Shown in pieces: positions 2,828 to 42,976 of a stretch of DNA of 64,000 nt. Source of the stretch: Bryobacteraceae bacterium (GTDB taxonomy: Bacteria; Acidobacteriota; Terriglobia; Bryobacterales; Bryobacteraceae); NCBI GenBank assembly GCA_030041495.1, contig JASHNT010000084.1:62001-126000 (forward strand), given 5' to 3'. The notes beneath the pieces are model-generated. The model saw only the letters and a list, made by a program, of their open reading frames with translations, made no database searches and had not been told where the DNA came from. The stretch's first letter is position 1. Each line of letters opens with the position of its first letter. A program made the translations under genes and the position numbers.

Positions 2828-5245
2828 ATGCAGGGGCGAAGATGGCGGTTTTATTGGCACTTAGCCGCAATGGCCGCGGCCTGTTGCGTCCTCTCCGCCG
2901 GGCCGGTGGATAGCGCCGCCGTTAGCGCCAATCCCGTTCACGGACTCCTCATTCAATACTGCGTCACCTGTCACAACCAGAAGCTGAAGACCGGCGGGTT
3001 GACCCTCGATAACGTGGACCTGACCCAGGTTCCGGCGCATGCGGCCACCTGGGAGAAGGTGATCGTCAAGCTGCGCTCCGGGACCATGCCGCCGGCGGGC
3101 GTTCGCCGGCCGGATCGGGCGACCTACGATGCCGCGGCTGAGTGGATCGAGGACCAGATCGATCAAGCCGCGGCCGGTCATCCTTACGCGGGCCGGCCGG
3201 CGCTGCACCGGATGAATCGAACCGAGTACGCCAATGCGGTTCGCGACCTGCTGGACTTGGAGATTCCGGTGAAGGAGCTGCTTCCGCCGGACGATTCGGC
3301 CTTCGGCTTCGATAATAACGCCGACATGCTGGGCGTGTCGCCCGCGCTCGAAGAGCGGTATCTGACGGCCGCCGGCAAGATCGCGAGCCTGGCGGTGGGA
3401 GATCCCCGCCAACCCGCCGGGAGCGAGACCTGGCGCATCCGGCAGGACCTGTCGCAGGACCGGCATATCGACGGCACGCCTCTGGGAACCGTGGGAGGGA
3501 TTTCGGTCCGCTACGTTTTTCCGCTCGATGGGCGCTATCAGTTCCAGGCCAAGCTGTATCGCACCAATCTGAACATCATGCGCGGATTGGAGACGCCTCA
3601 CCAGGTCGAATTCAGCCTGGACGGCCGCCGCATTCACCTAGCGCTAATCGGCGGAAACCAGGATCTGGCAGATTTGTTTGAGAAGCCCACCGACACCGGA
3701 GACGCCGTCGACGCCCGCTTGCGCGTTGACGTTCCCGTAACCGCCGGTCCCCACACGATTGCGGTGGCGTTCTTGAACAATCCTCAGTTCGCTGAGCCCA
3801 CGCGGCTTCAGCCGTTCCTGCGCAGCTCCGTCGACAATTTCGATTGGAGCGGGCATCCGCATCTGCAGATGGTGACGGTAAGCGGACCCTTCGACGCCGA
3901 CGGCCCCGGCGACACGCTTAGCCGGAGACGGATCTTTGTCTGTTATCCGAAGCAGCCGTCAGCCGCGGATGAGTGCGCGCGCCGGATCGTCTCGGGCTTG
4001 ATCGCGCGGGCTTATCGTGAACCGACGGTTGCGGAAACCGACGTCGAGCGCGCGATGGCGGTGTACCGCTCGGCGAGCCAGCAAGATTCCGTGCGAGGTT
4101 TCGAAGCTGGAATCGAGGCCTCCGTCGAACGGATTCTGGCCAGCCCGAAGTTCATCTTCCGCTCCGAACAAGACCCGCCGGGACTTGCGCCGGGAAGCGT
4201 GTATTCGCTGCGCGGCGCCGGTCTCGCTTCGCGGCTGTCGTTCTTTTTGTGGAGCAGCATTCCGGATGAGGCTCTGCTGCACGCCGCGGCGCAGGGCCGA
4301 TTAAACGATCCGAAGACCCTTGAAGCAGAAGCCCGCCGCATGCTGGCCGATCCGCGCGCCGAGGCTCTGGTCAGCAACTTCGCGGGCCAATGGCTGCAGC
4401 TTCGCAATCTGGCGAACGTGCAGCCGAACACTGACGAATTCCCGAATTTCGACGACAACTTGAGACAGGCGTTCCGCCGTGAGACAGAACTGTTGTTTCA
4501 AACGGTTCTCTCGGAAAATCGCAGCGTTGTGGATCTTCTTGATGCCGATTTCACTTTCGTCAATCAGCGGCTGGCCGAGCATTACGGAATCCCCAATGTG
4601 TACGGCTCGAATTTCCGGCGCGTGGCGATTACCGATGATGCTCGCCGGGGGCTCTTGGGACAGGGGAGCATCCTCGCTTTGACTTCGCATGCCGAACGCA
4701 CTTCGCCGGTGGTTCGCGGCAAATGGATTCTCGAGAATTTGCTTGGATTGGAGGTGCCTCCTCCGCCGCCCGATGTGCCGCCGTTGAAGCCGACTCCGGA
4801 CGGCGAGAAGCCGAAGACCATGCGGGAGCAGATGGCGGAGCATCGCGCGAGCCCGGTGTGTGCGTCGTGCCACAAAACTCTGGACCCCATCGGTTTCGCC
4901 CTCGAAAATTTCGACGCTGTCGGCGCATGGCGAACCGAGGAAGCCGGGAAGCCTGTAGACGCTTCTGGCGAGCTTGCGGACGGCACGAAGGTCAATGGGG
5001 TGGTCGCTTTGCGGAACGCGATCTTGAGCCGCCGTGAAGTCTTCGTTCAAACGGTGACAGAAAAACTGATGATCTACGCCTTGGGCCGCGGTCTGGATTA
5101 TCGCGACATGCCCGCGGTGCGTCAAATCGTGCGGGATTCGCAAAAGAACAACTACAGCCTGGCGAGCCTGATTTTGGGCGTGGCCGACAGCCCGCCGTTT
5201 CGCATGAACACTGTGCCACAGCAAGCAACGGGAGGAGCGCAATGA
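2828..5245 (+). CDS. DUF1592-family di-haem protein (PSCyt1/PSD1 type), cassette 1
   Basis: About 805 residues from the ATG at 2828; a GTG four codons upstream is the alternative. A signal peptide is followed by the domain order of this family: a cytochrome-c-like module with CVTCH near residue 45, a DUF1587 segment (HRMNRTEYANAVRDLL), a carbohydrate-binding-like middle region, DUF1595 (RRIVSGLIARAYREP), DUF1592 (GLASRLSFFLWSSIPDE), DUF1588 with a second haem motif CASCH near residue 677 followed by DPIGFALENFD, and C-terminal DUF1585. Two CxxCH motifs imply covalent haem in the periplasm. Family members are abundant in Planctomycetes and Acidobacteria; their reaction is unknown. The TGA overlaps the next ATG (ATGA at 5242), so translation is probably coupled to the DUF1552 gene. 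Confidence 0.92.
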   Translation: MQGRRWRFYWHLAAMAAACCVLSAGPVDSAAVSANPVHGLLIQYCVTCHNQKLKTGGLTLDNVDLTQVPAHAATWEKVIVKLRSGTMPPAGVRRPDRATYDAAAEWIEDQIDQAAAGHPYAGRPALHRMNRTEYANAVRDLLDLEIPVKELLPPDDSAFGFDNNADMLGVSPALEERYLTAAGKIASLAVGDPRQPAGSETWRIRQDLSQDRHIDGTPLGTVGGISVRYVFPLDGRYQFQAKLYRTNLNIMRGLETPHQVEFSLDGRRIHLALIGGNQDLADLFEKPTDTGDAVDARLRVDVPVTAGPHTIAVAFLNNPQFAEPTRLQPFLRSSVDNFDWSGHPHLQMVTVSGPFDADGPGDTLSRRRIFVCYPKQPSAADECARRIVSGLIARAYREPTVAETDVERAMAVYRSASQQDSVRGFEAGIEASVERILASPKFIFRSEQDPPGLAPGSVYSLRGAGLASRLSFFLWSSIPDEALLHAAAQGRLNDPKTLEAEARRMLADPRAEALVSNFAGQWLQLRNLANVQPNTDEFPNFDDNLRQAFRRETELLFQTVLSENRSVVDLLDADFTFVNQRLAEHYGIPNVYGSNFRRVAITDDARRGLLGQGSILALTSHAERTSPVVRGKWILENLLGLEVPPPPPDVPPLKPTPDGEKPKTMREQMAEHRASPVCASCHKTLDPIGFALENFDAVGAWRTEEAGKPVDASGELADGTKVNGVVALRNAILSRREVFVQTVTEKLMIYALGRGLDYRDMPAVRQIVRDSQKNNYSLASLILGVADSPPFRMNTVPQQATGGAQ

Positions 5246-6573
5246 AGGTTGTTTTCAAGAAGGCTCTGTCGCGGAGGACGTTGCTGCGCGGCGCAGGAAC
5301 CGCGCTATCGCTGCCTTTGTTGGACGCGATGTTTCCGGCGCTCGCGCCGCAAGCCAAGGCTGCCGCTCTGCCGCGATTGCGCTTTGGAGTTTCTTACATC
5401 CCCAACGGCGCGATCATGCAGCAGTTCACGCCCAAGCAAGCCGGCACCGGCTTCGAATTCCCGGAAATCCTCAAGCCGCTGGAGCCTTTTCGCGAGCAAC
5501 TGGCCGTGGTCACGAACCTCACGCGCTCGCATCCCGGCAGCCAGGTGGGCGACCACGCCGTGAGCGCAGCCGGGTTCCTCACCGGGGTCTGGCCCAAGCG
5601 CACCGAAGCCGAAGACGTCCTGGCGAACACCACCATCGATCAAATCGTCGCGCAGCAGATCGGGCAAGACGCGCCGTTGCCTTCGCTTGAACTCGCCACC
5701 GAGGATTTTACCGGTTACGTCGGCGGCTGCTCGCCCGGATTCAGTTGCGCGTACATGAACACGATTTCCTGGAGCACGCCCCAGACTCCGCTGCCGATGG
5801 AGACCAATCCGCGAGCGGTGTTCGAGCGCCTTTTTGGAGAACCGGGCAATGCGCAGGAGCGTTCGCAGCGGCTGCGCGATGAACGGAGCGTGCTCGATTC
5901 GATCGCCGAGGATGCTCGCGACCTGGAGCAAACTCTCGGCGCACACGACCGCGCCCGGTTGACCGAATATCTCGATAACATCCGGGAACTCGAGCGCCGC
6001 ATCGAGCAAGTGGAGGCTCGCAATCGCACGGACGTGAACGCTCCCGACGCCCCCATCGGCACACCGGATTCGTTCGAGGAACACGTCGGTCTGATGTTCG
6101 ACCTGACCGCGGCGGCGTTTGCCTCGGACGCGACGCGCGTGTTTACGTTCATGATGTCGCGCGAGCTGAGCCAGCGCACCTATCCGCAGATCGGCGTCAC
6201 GGAGCAGCATCATTCGGTGTCGCATCATTTGAACAAGCCGGACAAGATGGCGCAAGTGGTGAAAATCAACAGCTACTACATGCGCCTCTACATCAAGTTT
6301 TTGGAAAAACTGCGGGCGACTCCAGATGGCGACGGCAGTGTGCTGGATCACTCGCTGCTGGTTTACGGCGCGGGCATGGGCGATTCCAACGCCCACGCTT
6401 CCGATCCTCTGCCGATGGTGCTGGTGGGCGGAGGAGTGGGTAAGGGAGACCGGCACGTGGAGTTGCCGGTTCGCACGCCGGTGGGAAATCTGTGGCGCAA
6501 TGTAGCGGCGAAGTACGGCCGGCCGATGGATCAATTCGGCGACAGCACGGGGATCGCGGATGTTCTATCGTAG
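5242..6573 (+). CDS. DUF1552 family Tat-exported protein, cassette 1
   Basis: 443 residues. The N-terminus LSRRTLLRGAGTALSLPLLD is a twin-arginine signal. The mature part shows conserved features shared with the window's other two DUF1552 proteins: a GAIM motif after FxYxPHG-type strands, LPSLEL, SYxxTxSW-type strand, PMETNPRAVFERLFG, the ERRIEQVEARN helix, and SHHLNKPDKM followed by SLLVYGAGMGDSNAH. The family is thought to resemble DUF1501/alkaline-phosphatase-like folds; no reaction is established. It overlaps the DUF1592 gene by four bases upstream and the ankyrin gene by 14 bases downstream, an arrangement that implies a single translational unit. Confidence 0.92.
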   Translation: MKVVFKKALSRRTLLRGAGTALSLPLLDAMFPALAPQAKAAALPRLRFGVSYIPNGAIMQQFTPKQAGTGFEFPEILKPLEPFREQLAVVTNLTRSHPGSQVGDHAVSAAGFLTGVWPKRTEAEDVLANTTIDQIVAQQIGQDAPLPSLELATEDFTGYVGGCSPGFSCAYMNTISWSTPQTPLPMETNPRAVFERLFGEPGNAQERSQRLRDERSVLDSIAEDARDLEQTLGAHDRARLTEYLDNIRELERRIEQVEARNRTDVNAPDAPIGTPDSFEEHVGLMFDLTAAAFASDATRVFTFMMSRELSQRTYPQIGVTEQHHSVSHHLNKPDKMAQVVKINSYYMRLYIKFLEKLRATPDGDGSVLDHSLLVYGAGMGDSNAHASDPLPMVLVGGGVGKGDRHVELPVRTPVGNLWRNVAAKYGRPMDQFGDSTGIADVLS

Positions 6574-8068
6574 CGCAGTAGTGTTACTCGTGTGCGCCGG
6601 AGTTGTGCAGGCGGGTTCGCCGGCCTCTTCTTTGGCCGAGGCCGTCCGCAATGGCGATATAGCCCAGGTCCGCGCGCTGCTGCGCCAGCACGTCGATATG
6701 AGTGCGCAGGAGCCGGACGGATCGACCGCGCTGGATTGGGCCGTGCAAGCCGATAATGCCGAGCTCGCGGAGTTGCTACTCAGGGCCGGGGCCAGCGCGA
6801 TTACGCAAACGCCGGACGGCGTCACTCCGCTTTCCCTTGCCGCGCAAAACGGCAATGCCGCGATCGCGAAAGCCCTGCTCGATGCCGGGGCAGATCCCAA
6901 CCAGAAGCTCGCGGGAGGCGAAACCGTCCTGATGGCTGCGGCCCGCAACGGCAACGCGGAATTCTTGAACGCGCTGCTCGCGCACGGTGCTCAAGTTAAC
7001 GACAAGAGCAGCGCTTTCGGCGAGACGGCTCTGATGGTCGCCGCGGACGCAAATAAACCCGAAGCCGCTCGCGCGCTAATCGACCACGGAGCGGAGGTCA
7101 ATGGACGCTCCGTTAAGCTCGAATATCCCAAGGACCGGTTCGGCCTGGAAGGCGTCTTGACGATTCTGCCGCACGGGGATTGGACCGCTCTGATGTACGC
7201 GGCGCGCCAAGGGTCGGCGGAAGCCGCACGGGTGCTGTGCGAAGCCGGTGCAGACGTGAACGCAGTCGATCCGGACGGCACTTCCGCCCTGGTGTTGGCG
7301 ATCATCAACGGGCACTTCGATACCGCCGCGGTCTTGCTGGATTGCGGCGCAAATCCTAATCTCGCCGATAGCGCGGGGATGGGGCCGCTGTATGCCGCCG
7401 TGGACATGAATACGCTTGGCGAAATTTACGGACAGCCGCCCCGCCCGTCCACCGACAAGCTGCAGGCTCCGGACCTGATGAAGCTGCTGCTGGGGAAAGG
7501 CGCGGACCCGAACGGTAGGCTGAAGGGTCCCACACTGCAGCGGGCGCATACTCCGGGCGAGCCCACTCTCAATACCGGTTCGACGCCGCTGATGCGCGCC
7601 GCGAAGAACGGCGACGTGGAGGCGATTGAGTTGCTCGCGTCCCATGGCGCGGACGTGAACGCGGTCGCGAAGAACGGGACCACGGCGCTGATGTTCGCCG
7701 CGGGCCTGGGCCGAGGGGTCGGGACATTCGCCAAGGACTATGCCACCGATACCCAGATGCTCGCCGCGGCGAAGACTTTAGTGGCGCTGGGCGCCGATGT
7801 CAACGCGATCAGCGCAGCGGGTCAAACCCCGATGCATTTCGCTGCGGAGGCCACGGATGCGAATCTTCCACAGCCCTCTGACGACATGGTACGGTTTTTG
7901 GCCGCTCATGGCGTCAAATTGGACGTTGTGGATAAACAGGGACGCACGCCGGTGGAGATGGCGCAGGGCAAAGGTCTTCGCGGCCGGGCTGGGGGCCCGG
8001 TCAAGGCCCGTGAGAGCACCATCGCTCTGCTGCACGCTTTGATGAGCGGGCAGTCGAGTTCTCAGTAG
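6560..8068 (+). CDS. Secreted ankyrin-repeat protein, cassette 1
   Basis: 502 residues. The ATG at 6560 lies inside the end of the DUF1552 gene. A signal peptide (to about residue 26) is followed by ankyrin repeats of about 33 residues, recognisable by repeated G-x-TAL / A-x-xG-x-xE-xAxxLLxxGADVN patterns, with longer inserts between repeats (for example around KLEYPKDRFGLEG and GQPPRPSTDKL). Ankyrin repeats bind proteins, so this is probably a periplasmic or surface adaptor for its operon partners. Its stop abuts the stop of the convergent gene (8068/8069). Confidence 0.93.
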   Translation: MFYRSAVVLLVCAGVVQAGSPASSLAEAVRNGDIAQVRALLRQHVDMSAQEPDGSTALDWAVQADNAELAELLLRAGASAITQTPDGVTPLSLAAQNGNAAIAKALLDAGADPNQKLAGGETVLMAAARNGNAEFLNALLAHGAQVNDKSSAFGETALMVAADANKPEAARALIDHGAEVNGRSVKLEYPKDRFGLEGVLTILPHGDWTALMYAARQGSAEAARVLCEAGADVNAVDPDGTSALVLAIINGHFDTAAVLLDCGANPNLADSAGMGPLYAAVDMNTLGEIYGQPPRPSTDKLQAPDLMKLLLGKGADPNGRLKGPTLQRAHTPGEPTLNTGSTPLMRAAKNGDVEAIELLASHGADVNAVAKNGTTALMFAAGLGRGVGTFAKDYATDTQMLAAAKTLVALGADVNAISAAGQTPMHFAAEATDANLPQPSDDMVRFLAAHGVKLDVVDKQGRTPVEMAQGKGLRGRAGGPVKARESTIALLHALMSGQSSSQ

Positions 8069-12892: not shown

Positions 12893-12920
12893 ACTTCCCT
12901 CCAGCATTTCACCAACAGTT

Positions 12921-13856
12921 TTAGACCACGTTGCGGTCCATTTTGTCGTGGTGAGCCCACAATCCCTTAGCCGCTTCATACAAGAATTTTTCCGGATCTT
13001 TCCAGGTCCGCGGCAGTCCCTTCAGCACGCCGTCGGCCAGCATATCCTGGGGACCATCGCCTTCGCGGACATATTTGAAGAGGCGGTCACGAACCTGGTC
13101 CATCAGGTCGCGCTCAGCTTTGAACTCCGCGCGCGTCATCACGGGGCCATAGGCGGGCACAATCTTGGTTTGATCGTTGCTCAGCTTGAGCACGGTATCC
13201 ATGGCGTCAACGCGTCCGCCGATCCAAGCTCCGGTGAACCAATCGAGCGCCGGATCGCGCACCGGCGAAGCCACGTCGCCCACAGCGATTACATTCGAGT
13301 TCTTGAAGTGAACATAAATGTCGCCATTGGTGTGAGCGAGCAGCAGGTATCCGTAGTCGATCTGTTCGTCCCCGGCTTTGAGAGAGCCGGTTTCCTGGAA
13401 GGTTTCCGTTGGCAGAGCGGCTTTCGGGCGAGCCTTCTCGTAGCGGTCTTCCGAAGGCACCCAGTAATCGTTGGCCATCCATTCGCGAGTGCGCTCATGC
13501 GCGATGATTTTCGCTCCGGCCGCGCCAAACGTTTCATTGTTGCCGGTCTGATCGAGATGGTAGTGAGTATTGAATAGCGTTTGCACTTTCGCGCCCGGAG
13601 CGAGACTCTTGAGCCCGGCTATCACGTGATCAGCTGATTTCGGAGCACCGCTATCCACCAGCACCCGCCCCTCACCCGAGGAAAAAGCGACAACGTTCGC
13701 GCCGCCGTCGATGATTGCGAGCTTGTCTGAGATGCGGCGAACGCCATTTACCTGTTGCCCTTTGAGCAGCCGCGGCGACGCCCAGGCGGCCGCAATCGCC
13801 GCCGCGCCTTTCAAAATGTCTCTACGGTTCACTTGCTGTTCAGACTCCTTATACAT
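12921..13856 (-). CDS. MBL-fold hydrolase, Tat-type export, cassette 2
   Basis: 311 residues; the start overlaps the DUF1552 stop by eight bases, and a GTG at 13832 behind AAGGAG is an alternative. NRRDILKGAAAIAAAWA is a twin-arginine-type leader. The fold is metallo-beta-lactamase: VLVDSGAP, NTHYHLDQTGNN, LLAHTNGDIYVHF, VIAVGDVAS. The metal motif reads H98-x-H100-x-D102-Q103, so the fourth residue of canonical HxHxDH is Gln, as in some quinoprotein-associated (SoxH-like) members. It may still bind one or two metals through the His of AHTNGD and the Asp of VGD. Substrate unknown; lies between DUF1552 and the ankyrin gene. Confidence 0.88.
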   Translation of the reverse strand: MYKESEQQVNRRDILKGAAAIAAAWASPRLLKGQQVNGVRRISDKLAIIDGGANVVAFSSGEGRVLVDSGAPKSADHVIAGLKSLAPGAKVQTLFNTHYHLDQTGNNETFGAAGAKIIAHERTREWMANDYWVPSEDRYEKARPKAALPTETFQETGSLKAGDEQIDYGYLLLAHTNGDIYVHFKNSNVIAVGDVASPVRDPALDWFTGAWIGGRVDAMDTVLKLSNDQTKIVPAYGPVMTRAEFKAERDLMDQVRDRLFKYVREGDGPQDMLADGVLKGLPRTWKDPEKFLYEAAKGLWAHHDKMDRNVV

Positions 13857-17682: not shown

Positions 17683-17799
17683 GGGTATCAATTGCCGTTA
17701 GATCAGTAATTTGCAGCCGGGTCTTCGGACCCTCCTTTTCTATCACAGATACTGGCGGGTGGAAAGGCCAACCGCTCGTGATGGGACCTGCTTAAGAAT

Positions 17800-31466: not shown

Positions 31467-31468
31467 GC

Positions 31469-33370: not shown

Positions 33371-35173
33371 TTATTTCTCTTCGGGACCAGCGTTGGACGC
33401 GACGGGGATGCCCTTTTCCTTCATCAGGGATTCGAGCAGAGTCACGGTTTTGGGGAAGGCGTCCGGGCCTCCGCGCTGGCCTCCGGCTCCACGCGCAGCA
33501 TCGAGAGGCGTGCGTCCGTTGGCGTCCTTGGCGGTCAGGTCCGCGCCGTGATTGACCAAGTACACGATGAACTTGTCGAAACCGTGTTCGGCTGCGCCAT
33601 GCAAAGCGGTTTGATTGGGCACGGCGTTCGCGCTAGGCATCTGGCTGCCGCGGCGGAATTGTTGGGCGATACGCGCCGACGCGCTATCAGCAGCGGGAGC
33701 GGCAATCGACGTGGTCCCAGCCTGTGCGCCCGGAGCACCCCCGCCGCCCCTGGCTCCGCGGCCTCCTCCACCAGCGGCCCCACCCCGGCCTGCGCCGCCA
33801 GCAGCCGCACCGCGCCCTCCACCGCCAGGAGCGCCACCGCCTCCGCGGCCGCCCCGGCCGCCGGCATTGCGATCGGCGACGTCGCGGGCGTTTACGTCAG
33901 CACCGGCTTTGATCAGCAGATCCATAGTGGCCAGCACGCCTTCATCGGTGCGATTCCTTCCGCGCGTGACGCGAGTGCCGTAATCGACACCCGCTGCGGC
34001 CATCAGCGGCGTGATGCCCTCCTTGCTCGGCAAATCCACCAGAGCGTGGTACTGAAGCAGCAGCGCGGTAAACTTGTCGTCGCCGGCGCGCGCCGCGCGC
34101 AATAGAGGCGTCGCGCCCTGGGCCAGCATCTGGTCGCCGCCGCGATCCTGCGGAACGTCGCGGTACGGAGGACGCCGCTTCAATTGAATATTCGGGTCCG
34201 CCCCCTTTTCGAGCAGCATGCGTCCTACGTCCAGAGCCGACAGCTTATCCGTGCTGGGAATCACGGCCATCGCGCCGTTGCCTTTCATCGGCAGAGTGCT
34301 GACGTCAGCCGCCATGTACACCGGTGAGCGGCCGAACAGGTCCCACTTGTCCAGATCCGCGCCGCCGTTGATGAGCACCGCTGCCGTGTCGAAGTGCATG
34401 TTCTCGATCGCCAGCAGCAGCGGCGTCTCGCGATCCGGATCTTCAGGATCGGGATTGGCGCCCGCCGCGAGCAAGTACTGAACGCATAGCGCGCAGCCCT
34501 CGCGGGAAGCGTAATGCAGGGCGGTAAATCCGCCCTTGTTCATATCTTTCGGCCGAGGCTCCTGGATGACTTTCCGCTCCCACTGATTGATCTTGCCGTG
34601 ATCGTTCAGGTTCGCGCCCTTCGACGCCAGGAACTTCACCATCTCGGGCTGGCTCTGCGCAGCCGCCCACATCAGCGCGGACTGTTCGCCCCAGCTCTCC
34701 TTGGCATTGATATCCGCTCCCGCGTCAAGCAACACTTTAGCCGCGCCGACCTCGCCGCTGCGCGCGGCGGCCATGATCGGAGTTTCACCGTTGGGCGTCT
34801 TGAAATTGGGATCGGCGCCGGCTTTGAGCAGCGCTTCCAGAACCGGCGCGTTGCCGATAATCGCGGCTTCCGTGATCGCGGAGCTGCCCAACTGGGTCTC
34901 CAACTTGACGTTCGCGCCCGCCTTGATCAGCGCGCGCACCAGCTCCAGATCGCCATTGGCCGCCGCGTACATGATGGCGGTGCTGCCATCGGCCTCGGCG
35001 GCGTTGACGCTCGCGCCCTTGACGTTCACCAGCCGCATTGCAGCCGCGTGGTCTCCGGAAGAGACTGCTTCCAGCAGCGCTGTGCTTTTTGGCGTCGCGA
35101 TATCGGCCGCCAGCGCGAGCGACGCGCCGACGTATACAAATACGGGCGCAAATACGGCAAGCAGCTTCCTCAT
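33371..35173 (-). CDS. Secreted ankyrin-repeat protein with long Gly/Arg-rich insert, cassette 3
   Basis: 600 residues, GGAGG ribosome site. Signal peptide (LLAVFAPVFVYVGASLALA). Ankyrin units include ADGSTAIMYAAANGDLELVRAL, PNGETPIMAAARSGEVGAAKVLL and DRETPLLLAIENMHFDTAAVL. Between repeats near residues 435-490 is an insert made almost only of Gly, Arg and Ala (RGGRGGGGAPGGGGRG and more), followed by an Ala/Ser/Gln linker and two last repeats. The insert is too composition-biased to fold normally and looks like a flexible or nucleic-acid/polyanion-binding tract; its role is unknown. The gene follows DUF1552 by 20 bases. Confidence 0.92.
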   Translation of the reverse strand: MRKLLAVFAPVFVYVGASLALAADIATPKSTALLEAVSSGDHAAAMRLVNVKGASVNAAEADGSTAIMYAAANGDLELVRALIKAGANVKLETQLGSSAITEAAIIGNAPVLEALLKAGADPNFKTPNGETPIMAAARSGEVGAAKVLLDAGADINAKESWGEQSALMWAAAQSQPEMVKFLASKGANLNDHGKINQWERKVIQEPRPKDMNKGGFTALHYASREGCALCVQYLLAAGANPDPEDPDRETPLLLAIENMHFDTAAVLINGGADLDKWDLFGRSPVYMAADVSTLPMKGNGAMAVIPSTDKLSALDVGRMLLEKGADPNIQLKRRPPYRDVPQDRGGDQMLAQGATPLLRAARAGDDKFTALLLQYHALVDLPSKEGITPLMAAAGVDYGTRVTRGRNRTDEGVLATMDLLIKAGADVNARDVADRNAGGRGGRGGGGAPGGGGRGAAAGGAGRGGAAGGGGRGARGGGGAPGAQAGTTSIAAPAADSASARIAQQFRRGSQMPSANAVPNQTALHGAAEHGFDKFIVYLVNHGADLTAKDANGRTPLDAARGAGGQRGGPDAFPKTVTLLESLMKEKGIPVASNAGPEEK

Positions 35174-35193: not shown

Positions 35194-36477
35194 TTAAACC
35201 TCGGCGAGACCTTCGGTCGAATCACCGATCGACTTCACCGGCATCTCATTGCGCTGCAACAGAGTGAACAGCAGGTCGCCATGGCGCGAATCCTGCGGAT
35301 ACTTCAGGTGCTGGCCGCCCTTGATCTTCCCGTTAGCGTGGCCCAGAATCGCCGAAGGCAGTGGATCGTTGTTGTGGCGGTCGGAGTTGCTCATGTCGCT
35401 GCCGAACAGGATGGTCGCGTGATCCAGCACCGTCGCATCGGCCTCCTTGATCGTCTCCAGCTTCTTGACGTATTCGGCGAATACCTTGGTGTGGTACTGC
35501 TGTATCTGCACCAGCTTGTCCATCTTCTGCGGATTGTTGCCGTGATGCGACAGCGGATGGAACCCCTCGGCGATGCCTAAATTAGTGTAGGTGCGCATGC
35601 TAGCTTCGTGATCCATGGAGAAGGTGATCACGCGCGTGATGTCGGCCTGGAAGGCAAGCGCCATCAGGTCGAACATAACTTTGAAATACTCGGTGATATC
35701 GTTGGGCGTGCCGATGGGGGCGTCCGGAATCACCAGTTCGGGGTTATCCTGTTTTTCGGCCATGTGCACGCGGCGTTCAATCTCGCGAACCGAGTCGAGA
35801 TAGTCGCTGACTACGCTCCGATCCTGCACGCCAAGGCTCGCCTGCAGCCGCTTGGCCTCTCCTTGCACGCGGTCGAGGATGCTGCTGGTTTCCGAAAGAA
35901 TCTGGGCCCGCTCCAGATTGGTGTCGCCTTGTCCGAACAGCTTCTGGAACACCGCGCGCGGATTGCTTTCCTGCGGCAGAGGCTGGGTGGGCGTGCGCCA
36001 AGCCACGCGAGCGCTGGTGGTGGTGGTGAGTTCCAGAGATGGCAGCCGCGTGTCCTGACCGACGTAACGGACCGCGATCTGGTCCGCGCTCACGCCGGAG
36101 TCCGGACCGGCCTTGCCGAAGTCGTAGGGCTTGACGGCCGTGAGCCAGCCCTGTTCGATATAGGCGTGCGGCTCGGGCGTTTCCGCGGGCTTGTTGCGTA
36201 GGCCGGAGACGATGGTCAGGTGCTTGCGCAGAGGCTCCAGGGGCTCAAGGATGGTCGACATCTTATAGTCCGTGCCGGTCTGCTCGGGCGACCAGTGAGC
36301 CATGATCGCTCCGTGCGGGAATCCCACGAATGCGAAGCGCTTGGGGGGCTTCCCGGCGGGCGTGTCAGCCCAGGCTGTATTGGCGGGAAGCATCGCGTCG
36401 ATCAAGGGCAGAGCGATCGCGGCTCCGGCGCCCTTCAGAACAGCGCGGCGGGGAACGTGCTTCTTGGACAGGAACAT
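35194..36477 (-). CDS. DUF1552 family Tat-exported protein, cassette 3
   Basis: 427 residues with AAAGGAG nine bases upstream. Leader KKHVPRRAVLKGAGAAIALP is a twin-arginine signal. Family landmarks FVGFPHGAIMAHW, LPSLELTTT, PLPQESNPRAVFQKLFGQGD, REIERRVHMAEK, LMALAFQADITRVITFSMD, HPLSHHGNNPQKM and ILFGSDMSNSDRHNN. The last block matches the copy at 13849 closely (SNSD-x-HNN), while the copy at 5242 has GDSNAHAS there. Its usual partner DUF1592 is separated from it by the toxin-antitoxin insertion (36478-37385). Confidence 0.92.
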   Translation of the reverse strand: MFLSKKHVPRRAVLKGAGAAIALPLIDAMLPANTAWADTPAGKPPKRFAFVGFPHGAIMAHWSPEQTGTDYKMSTILEPLEPLRKHLTIVSGLRNKPAETPEPHAYIEQGWLTAVKPYDFGKAGPDSGVSADQIAVRYVGQDTRLPSLELTTTTSARVAWRTPTQPLPQESNPRAVFQKLFGQGDTNLERAQILSETSSILDRVQGEAKRLQASLGVQDRSVVSDYLDSVREIERRVHMAEKQDNPELVIPDAPIGTPNDITEYFKVMFDLMALAFQADITRVITFSMDHEASMRTYTNLGIAEGFHPLSHHGNNPQKMDKLVQIQQYHTKVFAEYVKKLETIKEADATVLDHATILFGSDMSNSDRHNNDPLPSAILGHANGKIKGGQHLKYPQDSRHGDLLFTLLQRNEMPVKSIGDSTEGLAEV

Positions 36478-37385: not shown

Positions 37386-39866
37386 CTACTTGCTGGCGAC
37401 CTGCTTATTGGCTGCCGGCGCCGGCTGGGGAACGCGGCGCATCTTGAACTGATCGCTGTTGACCACCGCCAGAACGATGGACGAGAACTTGTAATCTTTC
37501 GCCGCGGCCTCGCGCACGATTTTGCGAACCGTCGGCATGTCGTAGTATTCGCGCTCGCGGCCCATCGCGTAGGTCAGCAGGGCCTCGGTGAACGTCTGCA
37601 CGAACTGCTCCGGCTTTTTCAGCAGCGCCTTGCGCAGATCGTCCGGGCCATTGACCATGCTCCCGTCCGGCAACTCGCCCGCCGAATCGATCGCCGTGTT
37701 GGCGAAGCGATCCTTGTCCCGCCACATCCCGGTGGCGTCGAAGTTCTCCAGCGCAAAGCCCAGGGGGTCCATGATCGCGTGGCAGGAGGAACAAGCCGGG
37801 CTCGCGCGATGCTTGGCCATCAACTGGCGGACCGTCAAGGCCTTGGTCGTGCCGATGTCTTTGTCATCCAGCGTCGGGACATTCGGTGGAGGATTGGCCG
37901 GCGGAACGCCTTCTAAATACACCAGAATGGCTTTGCCGCGCAGCACCGGCGAGGTGCGATTCGGATACGCCGCCGCCATCAGAAACGCGCCCTTGCCCAA
38001 CAAGCCCCACCGCGCGGAGTCTTTCAATTCGACGCGCCGGAACTCGTCGCCCTTGACGTCGGTGATGCCGTATTGCAACGCCAGGCGCTCATTCAAATAG
38101 GTATGGCTGGCGCTGAGCAGATCCACGATATTGCGGTCCGCGCGGAAGATGCTGTCGGCGAACAACGCCAGCTCGGTCTTGAAATCCTGGCGTGGATCCA
38201 TGCGGCCGGAAGCGTACGGGAACACGTCGCGATCCGGCACCACGTCGTCCAGGCGCTTCATTTCCAGCCACTGAAACACGAAGTTGCTGGCCAGCGTCTT
38301 GGAGCGCGGATCGGCCAGCATGCGCTTCACTTCCCTTTCGAGAGTCGCCGGTTCGCTGAGCTTATTCTTCGAGGCCACGTCCACCAGTTCTTCGTCGGGA
38401 ATCGAATTCCACAGGAAGAAAGACAGCTTGGAGGCGAGCTCCAGATCGGTGATCTGGTACTTGTCGCCGGGCTTCAGTCCGGCGGGAACGCGTTGGCCGC
38501 GATACAGGAAGAACGGACTCGCCAGAATTCCGGTGACGCCTTCGCGAATGCCGGATTCGAAGCTTGAACTGCTCTCGCCCTGAGAACCGGGCGAACGCAG
38601 GCCCCCCTGTTTCGCGCCATCGTAGTAATACTGCATCAGCTCCGTGATGTCGTCATTGGTCGCCGGGCGGCGGTACGCGCGCCGCGCCAAGTTTGCGAAA
38701 ATCTGCCGGGCGCAGACCTCCGGAGACTTGGTCTTGTCTTTGTCGGGGTCGCAGGTCAGGATCAGGTTCCGGCTGGGGGTAGCGCTCAAGCCCTTCACAT
38801 CAAAAGGTCCCAGAAGCTGGAACGAATTTACGCGATACGACCGATCCTGCCCGCCGCCGGGCTCGAAGATCTGCAACTGATCGTCGGACTCGGCAAAACT
38901 TTGCCGCCGGAATGCCACGCCGATGTCGTGTGGTCCGGCGGTGGTCTCGAACTTGATGTTCTTCAGGCGCGCGTTCACGCGATCCAGCGCGCCATTCTGC
39001 ACCTGGTCATACAACTTCATGTCTTCTTCGCCGCCGATGACGGTCTGGTAAACGATCTTGTTGTCCACCGTCACCACCAGCGGATTCTCGTACTCCATGC
39101 CGTTGCCCCAGATGTGGGTGGCCATGTCAGCGATGTTGATGCGATACTCGCCGTCGGCCGGAAGATCCACCTTCGCGAGAATGCCCCCGCGCGTACCCAA
39201 CGGCAATCCCGGAACGTGCGTGAGCTGGCTCCCCGGACCCGCTTTAAACGACCAGCCTTGCGGCCGGGCATCCGGCTTGCCCATCGCCTCGACGGCGATG
39301 TTGTGCGCGGCGTGCACGTACTGCTCAATAAAGGATGGGGAGACCTGCAACGCCGAGGCGATGTTGTCGAACCCCTGCGCCGTGTCGTCCGGCGGCAGCA
39401 ACTCGGCCGCGTTGACGTCGACCAACAGCAGGTCGTGGACGGCGTTTTGATACTCCTCGCGATTCAGCCGGTGCAGCACCTCTTTGTCGCTGATGTGCTG
39501 CGGCTCGGGAAGCTTATCGAGCGAGCCTTCCAGGTACGCCACCAGCGCGTCAACCGCCTTACTGTCCGGCTGCTCGTTGCCCGGCGGCGGCATGACGCGC
39601 CCACGCAGCTTGCGCACTGCCTTTTCGAAAAGCTCCGGATTCTGCGCGATGCTCGCGGGCGTAATGCCGTCGAAGCTGACCCCGGCGGTCTTGGAAACAT
39701 TGTTGTGGCAGTCCGTGCAATACGTGGTGATGGTGGCCAGTTGAGCTTCGCCGGGCGCAGGCGAGTGGCCGGCAGCAGGAGTCTGACCCGTGAGCGGGGC
39801 GCACAGCACCGCGGCCAAGCCGGCGGCAGCGTAGAGAGGCATCCGAAGGTTTCGCACGGTTTTCAT
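37386..39866 (-). CDS. DUF1592-family di-haem protein, cassette 3
   Basis: About 826 residues from the ATG at 39866, picked as the start of the signal peptide (LRMPLYAAAGLAAVLCAPL); in-frame ATGs at 39887 and 39899 overlap the end of the MBL gene. CTDCH at residues 50-54, RKLRGRVMPPPGNEQPDS, DUF1587 (RLNREEYQNAVHDLLLVDV), DUF1595 (LARRAYRRPATNDDI), DUF1592 (LASKLSFFLWNSIPDEELV), DUF1588 with CSSCH near residue 690 and DPLGFALENFDATG, then DUF1585 (ALLTYAMGREREYYDMP). The protein has a 20-residue Ser-rich insert (SQGESSSSFESG) in the DUF1595-1592 linker. Same architecture as the other two copies. Confidence 0.92.
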   Translation of the reverse strand: MKTVRNLRMPLYAAAGLAAVLCAPLTGQTPAAGHSPAPGEAQLATITTYCTDCHNNVSKTAGVSFDGITPASIAQNPELFEKAVRKLRGRVMPPPGNEQPDSKAVDALVAYLEGSLDKLPEPQHISDKEVLHRLNREEYQNAVHDLLLVDVNAAELLPPDDTAQGFDNIASALQVSPSFIEQYVHAAHNIAVEAMGKPDARPQGWSFKAGPGSQLTHVPGLPLGTRGGILAKVDLPADGEYRINIADMATHIWGNGMEYENPLVVTVDNKIVYQTVIGGEEDMKLYDQVQNGALDRVNARLKNIKFETTAGPHDIGVAFRRQSFAESDDQLQIFEPGGGQDRSYRVNSFQLLGPFDVKGLSATPSRNLILTCDPDKDKTKSPEVCARQIFANLARRAYRRPATNDDITELMQYYYDGAKQGGLRSPGSQGESSSSFESGIREGVTGILASPFFLYRGQRVPAGLKPGDKYQITDLELASKLSFFLWNSIPDEELVDVASKNKLSEPATLEREVKRMLADPRSKTLASNFVFQWLEMKRLDDVVPDRDVFPYASGRMDPRQDFKTELALFADSIFRADRNIVDLLSASHTYLNERLALQYGITDVKGDEFRRVELKDSARWGLLGKGAFLMAAAYPNRTSPVLRGKAILVYLEGVPPANPPPNVPTLDDKDIGTTKALTVRQLMAKHRASPACSSCHAIMDPLGFALENFDATGMWRDKDRFANTAIDSAGELPDGSMVNGPDDLRKALLKKPEQFVQTFTEALLTYAMGREREYYDMPTVRKIVREAAAKDYKFSSIVLAVVNSDQFKMRRVPQPAPAANKQVASK

Positions 39867-39891
39867 GTTTTCAGGCGTCCGGGGCATATCT

Positions 39892-40809
39892 TTAAGCATC
39901 CGGCGAAAGATAGGCCCACTGGCTTTCAAACGCGCGGCGAATGAATTCGTCGGAGTTGCCCATCTTGGCTTCGTATTCCTTGGCCACTTTGGCCTCGACG
40001 GCTTCCGTCGGGCTGTGTCCTTTGTTCAACATCTGGTTCAGACGGTCGAAGATGTTGCCGTACATGTCGATCTGAGCGGTGATGTCGTCGTGGCTTAGCA
40101 CCGGGCCTTGCCCGGGGACGATCTTCGTGGTCTTATTGGCCACGCTCTGGATGCGCTGCAATCCGCCGACAATGCCGCCGATCCAGCCTCCGGTCCACCA
40201 ATCCATCACCGGCCAGCCTTGCCCGTAGGCCGCGTCGCCCACGGCGAGGATGTTCTGCTGCGGGAAGTAGACGTACAGATCGCCGTCTGTATGCGCGGCG
40301 TCAGAGATGTAGCCATAGCGGATTCCGGAGTCGAGCGTTCCCGTGGTGTAGAAAGTCTTGTTGGGCTGCGCAATCTTGGGCAGCTTCTTGAATTTCTGCC
40401 CGTTCCACGGCCAGGTGATATCTTCGGTGAGCCACAGCCGCGTGTTCTCCTGGGCGATGATGGCGACACCCGCCGCGCCCAGGCTTTGATTCGACCCGGT
40501 TTGTTGGGGATGCCAGTGCGTGTTGAACAGCGTCTTCACCGGACCGCTGTTCGGTAGCGCAGCCACCGCCTGCCCCAGTGCTGCGGCATTTTCGGCGAGT
40601 CCGCCGTCCACCATCAGGACTCCGTCAGACCCCGTATGCACCACGACGTTCGCTCCCGCGCCCCCCAACAGATAAAGGTTTTCGCCGAGCTTGGTGGTGG
40701 TGATCGCCGCTTGCCCGTTACGGGCCGAGCTACTTTGTGCGAAGGCGTAGGGCACGGTTACACCCGCCGCCGCAGCTTTGAGGAACGTCCTTCGCGTTGA
40801 ATCGGCCAT
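39892..40809 (-). CDS. MBL-fold hydrolase with altered metal motif, head of cassette 3
   Basis: 305 residues. Leader STRRTFLKAAAAGVTVPYAFA is a short twin-arginine type signal. MBL landmarks: GVLMVDGGLAEN, NTHWHPQQTGSN, DAAHTDGDLYVYF, ILAVGDAAYG, GQGPVLSHDD. The metal motif reads H98-x-H100-x-Q102-Q103: both the Asp and the following His of HxHxDH are Gln. It is a clear relative of the protein at 12921 (shared FNTH-H--QTG-N and HTDGD/HTNGD), where the Asp is kept. It may be single-metal or non-catalytic. The promoter hexamer is listed separately. Confidence 0.87.
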   Translation of the reverse strand: MADSTRRTFLKAAAAGVTVPYAFAQSSSARNGQAAITTTKLGENLYLLGGAGANVVVHTGSDGVLMVDGGLAENAAALGQAVAALPNSGPVKTLFNTHWHPQQTGSNQSLGAAGVAIIAQENTRLWLTEDITWPWNGQKFKKLPKIAQPNKTFYTTGTLDSGIRYGYISDAAHTDGDLYVYFPQQNILAVGDAAYGQGWPVMDWWTGGWIGGIVGGLQRIQSVANKTTKIVPGQGPVLSHDDITAQIDMYGNIFDRLNQMLNKGHSPTEAVEAKVAKEYEAKMGNSDEFIRRAFESQWAYLSPDA

Positions 40810-40844: not shown

Positions 40845-40892
40845 CCGGTGACTAGGCCCCAGATGAGCCCCACGGACCCGGTCGCTAGGGCC
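40845..40892. promoter_or_regulatory. Two related 15-base elements upstream of the MBL gene
   Basis: CCGGTGACTAGGCCC (40845-40859) and CCGGTCGCTAGGGCC (40878-40892) match at 12 of 15 positions, 33 bases apart. The core GTCGC(T/C)AGGG recurs twice upstream of the quinoprotein gene (43031-43065). A short inverted repeat TGACC-N6-GGTCA follows at 40902-40917. Confidence 0.5.
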
Positions 40893-41050
40893 GCGGCGTG
40901 ATGACCGTTAATGGTCACGACGGCGGCTTCCGACAGGAGCTTGAACCCGGCCCCTTGCGCCGCCACCTCAGCGTTCAGGCAGTACACTTCCGGAAGCAAC
41001 GCGGGAACATCAAAGGAACCGTCACTCGACAGCGCGGCGCGCACAGCCTC

Positions 41051-42976
41051 CTATCGATCCTGCACCTCCGGCGCGGCTGGCTGCCCGGCGTTGTTCCCGG
41101 GCTGCTCGCCATTGCCGCCGCGTCCCCCGCCGCGTGCGGGCGGAGGCGGAGCGGCTTTGGGCATCTCCGCGTTCCCGTCCAGTGCGAACACGAACAGGAC
41201 CGGCGGATTCTCGATCTTCGCGTCATTCGGACCGACCGTCGCCGCGGGACGGCCCAGGCCGCCCTGGAACGCGACGTACTGCTTGCCATCGACCTCGTAA
41301 GTGATGGGAGGCGCCATGCCGGTGCGGCCGGTCTGGATCTCGTACAGGACTTCGCCCTTGTCAGCGGTCACCGCGCGGAAGCGCCCGTCGTTGAGCACCT
41401 GGAATACGAGGTTGCCCGCGGTGGCGACGGTTCCTCCGCCAATTCCTCCGCCGCCGTCGGTGCGCCACACCAGTTTCTGATTCACCGGATCCCAAGCCTC
41501 CAGCGCTCCGCGCATGCCGTCCGCCGTCGGCGGACCGATCGCAGGGCTGTCGATTAGCTTCGGCGTTCCGCTGCCGCGCGAGTAGCCGGTCGTGCCGGCC
41601 TTCAGCTCCTCGGTTGCCGCGTAGGTGAACGGCATCAGGGATACTGGAATGTACACCCAGCCAGTCAGCGGACTGTAGGACATCGGCGACCAGTTATGCG
41701 CACCGCCTCCGGTCGGAAACAGTGAGATCGGGTCTGTGCCATAGTAGGCCGCGGGATTCACGATCGGCCGGCCCTTGGCGTCGAGGCCCAGCGCCCACGT
41801 CGTCTTCACGTAGGGAGCTCCGGAGATGAACTCGCCCGTGATCCGATCCAGCACCCAGAAGAAGCCGTTCTTCGAAGCTTGCGTGATCACTTTCCGAGTT
41901 TTGCCCTTGATGTTCAGGTCGAGCAGCATCAACTGCTGCACGCTATCGTAATCCCAGTTGTCGTTGGGCGTGGTCTGGAAGTACCACTTGAGTTGGCCCG
42001 AGTTCAGATCCACGGCCAGAATCGAGCAAGTATAGAGATTGTCCACGTTCTGCTTGCCGCGGAACTTCTGCACCCACGGCTCGGCATTGCCGGTGCCCAC
42101 GTAGATCAGGTTCGCTTCCGGATCGTAGGCGAAGCCGTCCCACACCGCGCCCCCTCCGCCCTTGGTCCAGAAATCGCCGCCCCAGGTCTTGAGGGCGGCT
42201 TTCATCGCTTCGTTCTCCGGCGGATTTTCAGGATTGCCGGGCACCGTGTAGAACTTCCACGCGGCGTGCCCGGTTTTGGCATCGAACGCCGCAAAGAAGC
42301 CGCGCGTCGGTTTGTCGCCTCCGGAAGCCCCGATGATCACCCGGTCGCCGGCGATGCGCGGAGCCATCGTCAGCGTGTACAGATCCTGCGAATAAGCCAC
42401 GCGCGATTCCCACACTGGTTTGCCGGTCAGCGCGTCGAGCGACACCAGCCGCCCGTCGTTGATCGCCGCAATGATGGTTCCGTTGTACAGCGCCAGACCG
42501 CGGTTCACGATGCCGCAGCAGATTTTCGGCCGCACCGCGGCCTGGTTCACTTCCGGATCCCAGCGCCACCGCTCCTTGCCCGTGGCGGCGTCCAGCGCGT
42601 AGATCACGCTCCAGGTGGTGATGCCGTAGAGCGTGTTGTTCCACATCAGCGGAGTGCCTTCCTGATTGCCTCCGCCCGCACCCACCACGTAGCTCCAGGC
42701 CAGGCCGAGGCGCTTCACGTTGCTATCGTTGATCTGCTTCAGGGTGCTGTAACGAGTCTCGTTTTGATTGCGCCCGTAGCTCAGCCAGGAACCCGGAAGA
42801 GGGTCATTCGCGCTGCCCGCGTTGCGCAGGACCTTGCTGTCGACGTTTACGGGTTTAGCCGCTTGCTGCGCGTTGAGCGAGCCGGCCGCGAGTCCCAGGA
42901 TTCCCAGAGCGAGTGTCGCGTGCGTGCATCTGGATGCGCAAAGGCCGAAAGCGGGTCTGCGAAGAATTGGCATCAT
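41051..42976 (-). CDS. PQQ-dependent alcohol-dehydrogenase-type quinoprotein, exported
   Basis: 641 residues. Signal peptide (HATLALGILGLAAGSLNAQ). The eight-bladed propeller features are clear: WLSYGRNQNETRYSTLKQIN, repeated W-motifs such as YALDAATGKERWRW and VSLDALTGKPVWESR, a vicinal Cys153-Cys154 pair (KICCG) typical of the PQQ site, VDNLYTCSILAVD and TTPNDNWDYDSVQQ near the catalytic Asp region, and GGAHNWSPMSYSP. No C-terminal cytochrome c domain; the tail is Pro/Gly/Arg-rich, so electrons must go to a separate acceptor. Whether the metal is calcium or a lanthanide cannot be settled by eye. AGGGGGA precedes the start. Confidence 0.92.
   Translation of the reverse strand: MMPILRRPAFGLCASRCTHATLALGILGLAAGSLNAQQAAKPVNVDSKVLRNAGSANDPLPGSWLSYGRNQNETRYSTLKQINDSNVKRLGLAWSYVVGAGGGNQEGTPLMWNNTLYGITTWSVIYALDAATGKERWRWDPEVNQAAVRPKICCGIVNRGLALYNGTIIAAINDGRLVSLDALTGKPVWESRVAYSQDLYTLTMAPRIAGDRVIIGASGGDKPTRGFFAAFDAKTGHAAWKFYTVPGNPENPPENEAMKAALKTWGGDFWTKGGGGAVWDGFAYDPEANLIYVGTGNAEPWVQKFRGKQNVDNLYTCSILAVDLNSGQLKWYFQTTPNDNWDYDSVQQLMLLDLNIKGKTRKVITQASKNGFFWVLDRITGEFISGAPYVKTTWALGLDAKGRPIVNPAAYYGTDPISLFPTGGGAHNWSPMSYSPLTGWVYIPVSLMPFTYAATEELKAGTTGYSRGSGTPKLIDSPAIGPPTADGMRGALEAWDPVNQKLVWRTDGGGGIGGGTVATAGNLVFQVLNDGRFRAVTADKGEVLYEIQTGRTGMAPPITYEVDGKQYVAFQGGLGRPAATVGPNDAKIENPPVLFVFALDGNAEMPKAAPPPPARGGGRGGNGEQPGNNAGQPAAPEVQDR

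What the first reader, a model, noticed from the sequence alone, without database searches (positions are those of the whole stretch)
2828..42976. Triplicated exported redox cassette: DUF1592, DUF1552, secreted ankyrin protein, MBL
Three separate loci (2828-8068, 18339-11129, 40809-30534) keep the order DUF1592, DUF1552, ankyrin, with overlaps of 4-14 bases in cassettes 1 and 2. Cassettes 2 and 3 add MBL proteins; cassette 2 begins with a soluble cytochrome; cassette 3 follows a quinoprotein. Every product has a Sec or Tat signal. DUF1592 and DUF1552 co-occurrence is known from acidobacterial and planctomycete genomes, but no function is established, and the fixed presence of a secreted ankyrin protein as third partner suggests a complex. 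Inference: a periplasmic multi-protein oxidation or hydrolysis machine whose copies differ in substrate.
Basis: partly seen in the sequence, partly recalled or inferred. Interest (0 to 1): 0.75.

Follow-up and report, generated by a model that had tools for sequence, protein, structure and literature searches.

The report
Secreted ankyrin–cytochrome–hydrolase gene triad
A soil bacterium carries about sixteen copies of a three-gene unit for exported proteins (a two-haem cytochrome, a sulfatase-fold protein and an ankyrin-repeat protein) that stay together and diverge together across several bacterial groups, which suggests one machine whose job is still unknown.

Summary
The genome has 19 DUF1592 genes: 16 have both DUF1552 and a secreted ankyrin gene beside them, 2 lack the ankyrin, 1 lies at a contig end. 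Across 203 DUF1592 records from many genomes, ankyrin linkage marks one subfamily: 141 of 148 decidable rows inside one clade have it, 0 of 34 outside. The outside genes mostly still sit beside DUF1552. The three genes diverge in step among 16 paralogous triads of one genome (Mantel r 0.79-0.82, 0 of 2000 permutations). Models give DUF1552 an alkaline-phosphatase/sulfatase fold, nearly always without the sulfatase motif (3 of 184 have it). DUF1592 is a two-haem protein with a carbohydrate-binding-like beta-sandwich in an otherwise unmatched fold. Best reading: the ankyrin protein is the dedicated scaffold or assembly partner of an exported redox/hydrolase pair. Contact, cofactors, reaction and substrate are not shown. 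The DUF1592-DUF1552 pair is in print; I found no report of the ankyrin partner.

The parts
2816..5245 (+). Cassette 1: DUF1592 protein (PSCyt1-PSD3-beta-sandwich-PSD5-PSD4-PSCyt3-PSD2), two CXXCH
   Evidence: Pfam PF07631 1.1e-49 and five more PSD/PSCyt domains; model pLDDT 92.5
5242..6573 (+). Cassette 1: DUF1552 (HXXSHH) protein, twin-arginine N-terminus, alkaline-phosphatase/sulfatase-like fold
   Evidence: PF07586 1e-94; model pLDDT 92.0; Foldseek best E 3.2e-7
6560..8068 (+). Cassette 1: secreted ankyrin-repeat protein
   Evidence: PF12796 1.2e-66
17800..18339 (-). Cassette 2: small ORF with one CXXCH, weak cytochrome c' resemblance
   Evidence: PF01322 20.6 bits, under cutoff 26.5; CXXCH
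15214..17691 (-). Cassette 2: DUF1592 protein
   Evidence: PF07631 1.9e-44
13849..15186 (-). Cassette 2: DUF1552 protein
   Evidence: PF07586 8.9e-75
12921..13856 (-). Cassette 2: metallo-beta-lactamase-fold protein, Tat-type N-terminus, between DUF1552 and ankyrin
   Evidence: PF00753 5.8e-15 and sub-cutoff PF10518 TAT_signal; NCBIfam matches all below their cutoffs
11129..12979 (-). Cassette 2: secreted ankyrin-repeat protein
   Evidence: PF12796 3.3e-57
41051..42976 (-). Upstream of cassette 3: PQQ quinoprotein dehydrogenase-like
   Evidence: PF01011 7.5e-82
39892..40809 (-). Cassette 3: metallo-beta-lactamase-fold protein
   Evidence: PF00753 1.1e-12; TIGR04559 60.5 bits, cutoff 280
37386..39929 (-). 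Cassette 3: DUF1592 protein
   Evidence: PF07631 1.7e-38
35194..36477 (-). Cassette 3: DUF1552 protein
   Evidence: PF07586 7.7e-86
33371..35173 (-). Cassette 3: secreted ankyrin-repeat protein
   Evidence: PF12796 9.6e-57
30534..31529 (-). Downstream of cassette 3: metallo-beta-lactamase-fold protein
   Evidence: PF00753 5.2e-13; TIGR04559 69.9 bits, cutoff 280

Best explanation
Each cassette encodes one exported working unit. DUF1592 goes out through Sec and receives two c-type haems; a beta-sandwich inside it may bind a sugar chain or similar polymer. DUF1552 goes out folded through Tat and is predicted to be a metal-dependent hydrolase-like enzyme of alkaline-phosphatase fold that is not a classical sulfatase. 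The secreted ankyrin protein is their dedicated scaffold or assembly partner, holding DUF1552 and DUF1592 together. The unit would attack organic material outside the cytoplasm, with electrons passing between the haems and soluble cytochrome or PQQ dehydrogenase. Shown by computation: the fixed triad, its single-clade distribution, co-divergence, folds, and export signals by a crude test. Inferred: physical contact, metal and haem content, scaffold role, reaction and substrate.
For: 141 of 148 decidable rows inside one clade (support 99) are ankyrin-linked, 0 of 34 outside; DUF1552 is assigned to all 141. The same rule held in same-order relatives that have 18-23 DUF1592 but 1-7 strong ankyrin matches each: of 34 rows from five of these genomes, 21 lie in the clade and all have the ankyrin, 13 lie outside and none has. 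Inside the clade, 3 of the 7 ankyrin-less genes are DUF1592 with no DUF1552 either, as if both partners go together. Co-divergence of all three genes in 16 paralogous triads of this genome (0.79, 0.82, 0.81) and 12 of G025 (0.96, 0.91, 0.90); in the full set and in this genome the ankyrin tracks each partner with the other held constant. Gammaproteobacterial triads L041 and L057 have, after each other, the same nearest cassette, L002 of this genome, in all three genes. Folds. Near cassettes: a PQQ-type cluster at 15 loci, two receptor-like clusters at 10 loci each, MBL within 6.5 kb of 16 of 116.
Against: No contact is shown; no natural fusion of any two of the families was found among the ORFs scanned (window, L001-L016 and L027-L156). 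Conservation of the ankyrin concave surface over its outer surface was not significant overall (p = 0.28). Partial correlations are uneven in the smaller genomes' sets: in G025 the ankyrin keeps its link to DUF1592 but hardly to DUF1552 (0.43 and 0.20), in G023 the reverse (0.13 and 0.58). An orphan ankyrin gene (C69) and an orphan DUF1552 (C18) exist in the genome, and 4 clade members have DUF1552 but no ankyrin of their own. Outside the clade the pair does without this ankyrin. DUF1552 matches to solved structures reach TM 0.46 only, and the carbohydrate-module matches of DUF1592 are weak.
Confidence: 0.5

Rival explanations
1. The ankyrin protein is a cofactor-loading or maturation chaperone for the haem protein (or DUF1552), as ankyrin proteins are for catalase in Pseudomonas aeruginosa (AnkB-KatB) and Campylobacter jejuni (Cj1386-KatA), and is not part of the working enzyme.
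For: [quoted passage not shown] The partner here is also a haem protein with an ankyrin gene beside it.
Against: The haems of DUF1592 are CXXCH-bound c-type and would be attached by the general cytochrome c machinery (recalled). DUF1592 proteins outside the clade with the same PSCyt1 and PSCyt3 cytochrome domains do without this ankyrin.
Confidence: 0.2
2. The three genes belong to one pathway and are duplicated and transferred together as an operon, but the proteins do not touch; ankyrin might bind substrate or another surface protein.
For: Co-duplication alone gives correlated distance matrices; the ankyrin gene lies downstream on the same strand (117), upstream on the same strand (14) or upstream on the other strand (10) in the 141 triads, so strict co-translation is not needed.
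Against: Persistence of the triad through divergence to about 45% identity inside one genome, where the commonest other neighbours recur at no more than 17 loci.
Confidence: 0.2
3. The ankyrin protein is a specific inhibitor or regulator that protects the cell envelope from the DUF1592/DUF1552 activity.
For: One-to-one pairing and co-divergence would fit enzyme-inhibitor pairs.
Against: The 30 decidable DUF1592/DUF1552 pairs outside the clade have no such gene, and 4 pairs inside it lack one of their own.
Confidence: 0.07

Closest known systems
'Planctomycete-specific' cytochrome/domain gene pairs (PSCyt3-type gene beside an unknown family), He et al. 2017, PMC5615132 (section 13 read)
   Same: Same PSCyt/PSD multi-domain proteins and the same habit of sitting next to a second unknown family, in many copies per genome.
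   Different: That section names no ankyrin partner, and 'ankyrin' did not occur in the paper's main text. Here a subclade has a third, secreted ankyrin gene; function unknown in both.
DUF1501-DUF1800 pairs (e.g. beside bacterial chitin synthases, PMC5122149, passages read)
   Same: A Tat-type protein paired with a second unknown family in an operon; motif order of DUF1501 looks similar to DUF1552 by eye.
   Different: Different second family; no ankyrin named in the passages read; profile comparison of DUF1552 with DUF1501 gave no significant match (probability 3%).
Sulfatase/alkaline phosphatase superfamily
   Same: DUF1552 model matches 30 chains at E 0.001 or better, the best a carrageenan sulfatase.
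   Different: C-x-P/A-x-R in only 3 of 184 sequences; it has its own universal His/Asp set.
Periplasmic ankyrin-catalase pairs (AnkB-KatB; Cj1386-KatA; Leptospira ank-katE; PMC7567364 passages)
   Same: Ankyrin protein encoded with a haem enzyme and needed for its activity.
   Different: Partner here is a c-type two-haem protein plus an alkaline-phosphatase-fold protein; sequence kinship of the ankyrins was not tested.
Cbp2D/Cbp2E redox proteins of Cellvibrio japonicus (PMC12542752 passages)
   Same: c-type cytochrome domain with a carbohydrate-binding module, important for growth on insoluble cellulose: a model for what a CBM-like haem protein might do.
   Different: Different domains (X158, X183, X132, CBM2 named there); 'DUF' did not occur in its main text; homology not tested.

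Membership tests
PSCyt/PSD (DUF1592-type) protein family | Domains PSD3, PSD5, PSD4, PSCyt3, PSD2 in order | tested here: met
   All three window copies above Pfam cutoffs
PSCyt/PSD (DUF1592-type) protein family | Two haem-binding CXXCH motifs | tested here: met
   141 of 141 ankyrin-linked proteins have two or more
DUF1552 (HXXSHH) | Pfam PF07586 match | tested here: met
   E 1e-94, 8.9e-75, 7.7e-86
Alkaline-phosphatase/sulfatase superfamily | Common fold | tested here: met
   Foldseek E 3.2e-7 to 1e-3 for 30 chains named as sulfatases, phosphonate hydrolases and other superfamily members, TM to the query 0.36-0.46
Type I sulfatases | C/S-x-P/A-x-R formylglycine motif and PF00884 match | tested here: not met
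   C.[PA].R in 3 of 184 DUF1552 sequences; S.[PA].R somewhere in the protein in 44 of 144, position not checked; no PF00884 match in the window copies
Alkaline-phosphatase/sulfatase superfamily | Metal site geometry and hydrolase activity | not testable with these tools
   Model coordinates not available for geometry; no assay
Di-haem cytochrome c peroxidase / MauG fold | Fold match of the helical two-haem part | tested here: inconclusive
   None among the 50 best PDB matches shown of 443; these are beta-sandwich or unrelated proteins by title; the helical part was not searched alone
Carbohydrate-binding module (CBM35/36-like) | Beta-sandwich fold | tested here: inconclusive
   CBM35/CBM36 and sugar-active enzymes among the matches, but C1q/TNF-like folds match as well and only 3 matches reach E 0.001; no Pfam CBM match
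Quinoprotein relay MBL (TIGR04558/TIGR04559) | Score above NCBIfam cutoff | tested here: not met
   Best 69.9 bits against cutoff 280
AnkB/Cj1386-type catalase ankyrin proteins | Sequence kinship and haem binding | not tested
   Only the published precedent was read

The most novel reading that the evidence does not exclude
A new exported three-protein machine: a two-haem, carbohydrate-binding-like protein and a non-sulfatase alkaline-phosphatase-fold enzyme clamped by a dedicated ankyrin scaffold, attacking recalcitrant soil polymers by coupled electron transfer and hydrolysis, expanded to a dozen or more copies per genome for different substrates.
Probability: 0.25. Interest if true: 0.85.

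Novelty: new variant of a known kind. Interest (0 to 1): 0.6.

Why it matters
DUF1592 and DUF1552 occur in many copies in some soil Acidobacteria and in planctomycete and verrucomicrobial genomes and have no function that I found in print. A fixed third partner gives a definite handle: it separates one subfamily from the rest, predicts a stoichiometric complex that can be co-expressed and purified, and offers within-genome controls (solitary DUF1592, ankyrin-less pairs). If the complex is real it could lead to a first function for these families and show a role for exported ankyrin proteins beyond the catalase case.

Tried and rejected
Plain sulfatase reading of DUF1552: fold yes, motif no. 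Homology of DUF1552 to DUF1501 or to the genome's one strong sulfatase match by profile comparison: no significant match (few template sequences). Solved-structure sequence search for DUF1552 and DUF1592: best E 0.47 and 0.94, nothing convincing. Recent tandem triplication: rejected, the window copies are about 40% identical and scattered on the tree. Ankyrin as universal partner of DUF1592/DUF1552: rejected, only one clade. Ankyrin concave-surface conservation as a sign of a binding face: not significant overall. Natural fusions as proof of contact: none among the ORFs scanned. Clade-specific features as an interface: three positions (E73, F469, R762, trimmed numbering) and one 5-residue stretch in DUF1592 and none in DUF1552, too few to say anything. 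The first neighbourhood table lost divergent DUF1592 through domain splitting and was replaced. Searches gave an ankyrin to every DUF1592 within 6.5 kb; on rechecking I found that this credited some genes with the adjacent cassette's ankyrin and counted one G025 gene twice (L115_1 and L116_7233). One search assigns each ankyrin to one cassette only and removes repeats more strictly: the set goes from 116 linked, 19 not, 18 undecidable of 153 to 113, 21 and 18 of 152, and the clade counts from 145 of 150 to 141 of 148. One search repeats the correlations; the earlier odd result in G025 (ankyrin tracking DUF1552 only) came from that mis-paired triad and is gone. The ankyrin-family search over 60 Acidobacteriota genomes at 1e-60 found it in 3 and DUF1592 in 10; reading the neighbourhoods then showed ankyrins that the cut-off had missed in G032, G048, G075 and G088, so that count is not used as evidence.
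Full report
What is there. The window (62% G+C) comes from a 6.12 Mb draft genome. The nearest named DUF1592 relatives are records titled Terriglobia, Bryobacteraceae/Bryobacterales and other Acidobacteria, so it is most likely an acidobacterium; the exact taxon is not told.

Copy number. The genome has 19 DUF1592, 20 DUF1552 and 90 Ank_2 matches in about 21 ORFs (ORFs counted by eye). I read the surroundings of all 19 DUF1592 genes: 16 have both DUF1552 and ankyrin, 2 have no ankyrin (L001, which also lacks DUF1552, and L011), 1 is cut by a contig end (L006). Thirteen have the ankyrin downstream on the same strand (cytochrome, MBL or other genes interposed in some), two have it upstream and one upstream on the other strand. 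Other ankyrin genes of the genome were read too: C69 is an orphan of the same family, C85 lies at a contig end, C52, C72 and C65 are only distant ankyrins. Three DUF1552 without DUF1592 were read as well: C18 stands alone, C65 is a divergent copy, C112 is cut by a contig end.

Other genomes. One named sample: the 79 loci most similar to this genome's DUF1592 (the tool kept the best 80 of 581). DUF1552 is within 6.5 kb in 77 of 79 and ankyrin in 68 of 79; among the 44 with enough flank on both sides the numbers are 43 and 42 (proximity only). This sample is biased to close relatives, so I added every DUF1592 match found in five genomes behind some of those loci: records titled Isosphaeraceae (G021), Verrucomicrobia (G022) and Gammaproteobacteria (G023-G025). 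With each ankyrin assigned to one cassette and repeats removed, these and the own-genome loci give 152 records: 113 ankyrin-linked, 21 not, 18 undecidable at ends; DUF1552 in 113 of 113 and 18 of 21. In G021 and G022 only the copy already found by similarity has an ankyrin; the others (11 decidable in G021; 3 decidable and 4 not in G022) have none.

One clade. A first FastTree of the C-terminal 480 residues needed 5 changes of the ankyrin label. I then tested the rule on samples not chosen for likeness to the ankyrin-linked type: DUF1592 genes of 9 other Acidobacteriota genomes, out of 60 genomes drawn over the phylum with the own one included (18 of their 20 matches fetched; two partial ones in G055 were not), two from planctomycetes, and 35 stretches from five same-order relatives (G014, G016, G017, G018, G020) that have 18-23 DUF1592 but only 1-7 strong ankyrin matches (35 of 102 DUF1592 matches, taken from a truncated list and hence the higher-scoring ones). 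Final tree: 203 rows, 182 decidable, 7 changes. One clade (support 99) holds 162 rows: 141 ankyrin-linked, 7 not, 14 undecidable. Outside: 0 linked, 34 not, 7 undecidable; 30 of the 34 have DUF1552. The phylum sample splits 7 linked inside against 7 not linked and 3 undecidable outside; the same-order sample 21 linked inside against 13 not linked outside. Seven changes fit one gain and about six losses. Of the seven ankyrin-less members of the clade three lack DUF1552 as well (L001, L032, L150), four keep it (L011, L060, L095_8992, and L069_8914, which shares a single ankyrin gene with a divergent neighbour pair). The tree is FastTree with local support only.

Co-divergence. For 129 of the 141 triads (12 dropped for short sequences) pairwise distances correlate: DUF1592-DUF1552 0.85, DUF1592-ankyrin 0.84, DUF1552-ankyrin 0.83 (0 of 500 permutations each). 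Within this genome's 16 paralogous triads, which removes species history, the values are 0.79, 0.82 and 0.81, and within 12 of G025 0.96, 0.91 and 0.90 (0 of 2000 permutations each); within 8 of G023 0.91, 0.83 and 0.89 (2, 3 and 0 of 2000). Partial correlations keep both ankyrin links in this genome (0.47 with DUF1552, 0.49 with DUF1592) and in the full set (0.40, 0.47); in G025 the link is mainly to DUF1592 (0.43 against 0.20, the latter reached by 106 of 2000), in G023 mainly to DUF1552 (0.58 against 0.13). Gammaproteobacterial cassettes L041 and L057 have L002, of this genome, as their nearest cassette after each other in all three genes, consistent with transfer of the triad as a unit. 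Such correlations show linkage and shared history; they do not prove contact.

What the proteins are. DUF1552: model pLDDT 92.0; Foldseek finds alkaline-phosphatase/sulfatase superfamily chains, best E 3.2e-7, TM 0.46. Residues kept in both ankyrin-linked and other members include H105, D133, Q134, D236, R248, E251, R299, H324, H328 and H385; the C-x-P/A-x-R motif of sulfatases occurs in 3 of 184. A metal-dependent hydrolase is likely by fold, unproved by activity. DUF1592: model pLDDT 92.5; two CXXCH; invariant M91 after the first and H676 before the second among 16 own-genome copies, haem ligands by inference. A central beta-sandwich resembles CBM35/CBM36 but also C1q-like folds; the helical remainder has no evident PDB match among the 50 shown. 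Ankyrin: about eleven repeat anchors in the consensus after a hydrophobic N-terminus.

Surroundings. Near the 118 ankyrin-linked cassettes (proximity rule, not freed of repeats) the commonest other neighbours are an unknown exported family (17 loci), PQQ-type dehydrogenases (15 loci), two groups of receptor-like proteins (10 loci each; one representative confirmed as a TonB-dependent receptor by Pfam, the other judged by eye) and small c-type cytochromes (4 loci); MBL genes lie near 16 of 116. The window also has a tannase/feruloyl-esterase gene and a dienelactone hydrolase gene. No background rate was computed, so this is a hint towards breakdown of plant-derived matter, not evidence.

Mechanism. 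I commit to a scaffolded exported redox/hydrolase pair (0.5). The main rivals are a maturation chaperone like the catalase ankyrins (0.2), a precedent read in passages of PMC7567364, and a pathway operon without contact (0.2). Shown by computation: linkage, clade, co-divergence, folds; export signals by a crude test. Inferred: contact, cofactors, reaction, substrate.

Known or new. Section 13 of PMC5615132 reports that PSCyt3 genes usually lie next to an unknown family and that nothing is known of their functions; the pair is therefore not new. Full-text searches for DUF1592 with DUF1552 (0 papers), DUF1592 (2), DUF1552 (2), PSCyt1 (2), DUF1501 (10), ankyrin with Acidobacteria, cytochrome c, secreted and operon (1) and planctomycete-domain terms with ankyrin (63 holding at least two terms, 12 listed) showed me no report of the ankyrin partner. 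The library lacks most subscription papers, and apart from PMC5615132, PMC6004670, PMC11495043 and PMC5122149 (passages or a section) I opened none of the papers listed there, PMC2754498 and PMC7789669 included. PMC6004670 (one passage) lists a CBM2-tagged DUF1592-domain protein assigned to Cellvibrio in a lignocellulose-degrading community, a lead towards polysaccharide work.

Noticed in passing
window 36781-37143 (-); L007:10489-10824: A small ORF sits between DUF1592 and DUF1552 in cassette 3 and one of similar look at the same place in another cassette of the genome; perhaps a PIN/DUF5615-like toxin module (recalled, not tested).
   Followed up: no
window 8875-9744 (-) and 32354-33355 (-): Two exported proteins without Pfam match flank cassettes 1 and 3 and look alike at their N-termini (CDR-CL); the family of the second recurs at 3 loci.
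   Followed up: partly
window 31469-32317 (-); L141:5020-5844: Exported proteins with an N-terminal 'ADG(K/S)' motif recur beside cassettes (17 loci for the L141 cluster) with no Pfam match; that the window protein belongs to the same family is by eye.
   Followed up: partly
L159:6896-8710 and L160:6699-8636 (own genome C52, C72): Exported-looking ankyrin proteins joined to a squalene-hopene-cyclase-like part (sub-cutoff in L160) and carrying a C..CH motif: another ankyrin combination in the same genome.
   Followed up: partly
window 22068-23666 (+) and 444-1307 (+): Tannase/feruloyl-esterase (PF07519) and dienelactone hydrolase (PF01738) genes in the window, pointing to plant-derived aromatic substrates.
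   Followed up: no
L125:7469-11584 (G021): A 1371-residue DUF1592 protein with about 750 residues between PSD3 and PSD5 that match no Pfam family; it lies outside the ankyrin clade.
   Followed up: no
L162:7565-8908 and L157:7479-9314 (own genome C18, C69): Orphan DUF1552 and orphan cassette-type ankyrin genes, useful as natural controls.
   Followed up: partly
L069:4448-12731: Two divergent DUF1592-DUF1552 pairs with one ankyrin gene between them: a shared ankyrin, or one lost copy.
   Followed up: no
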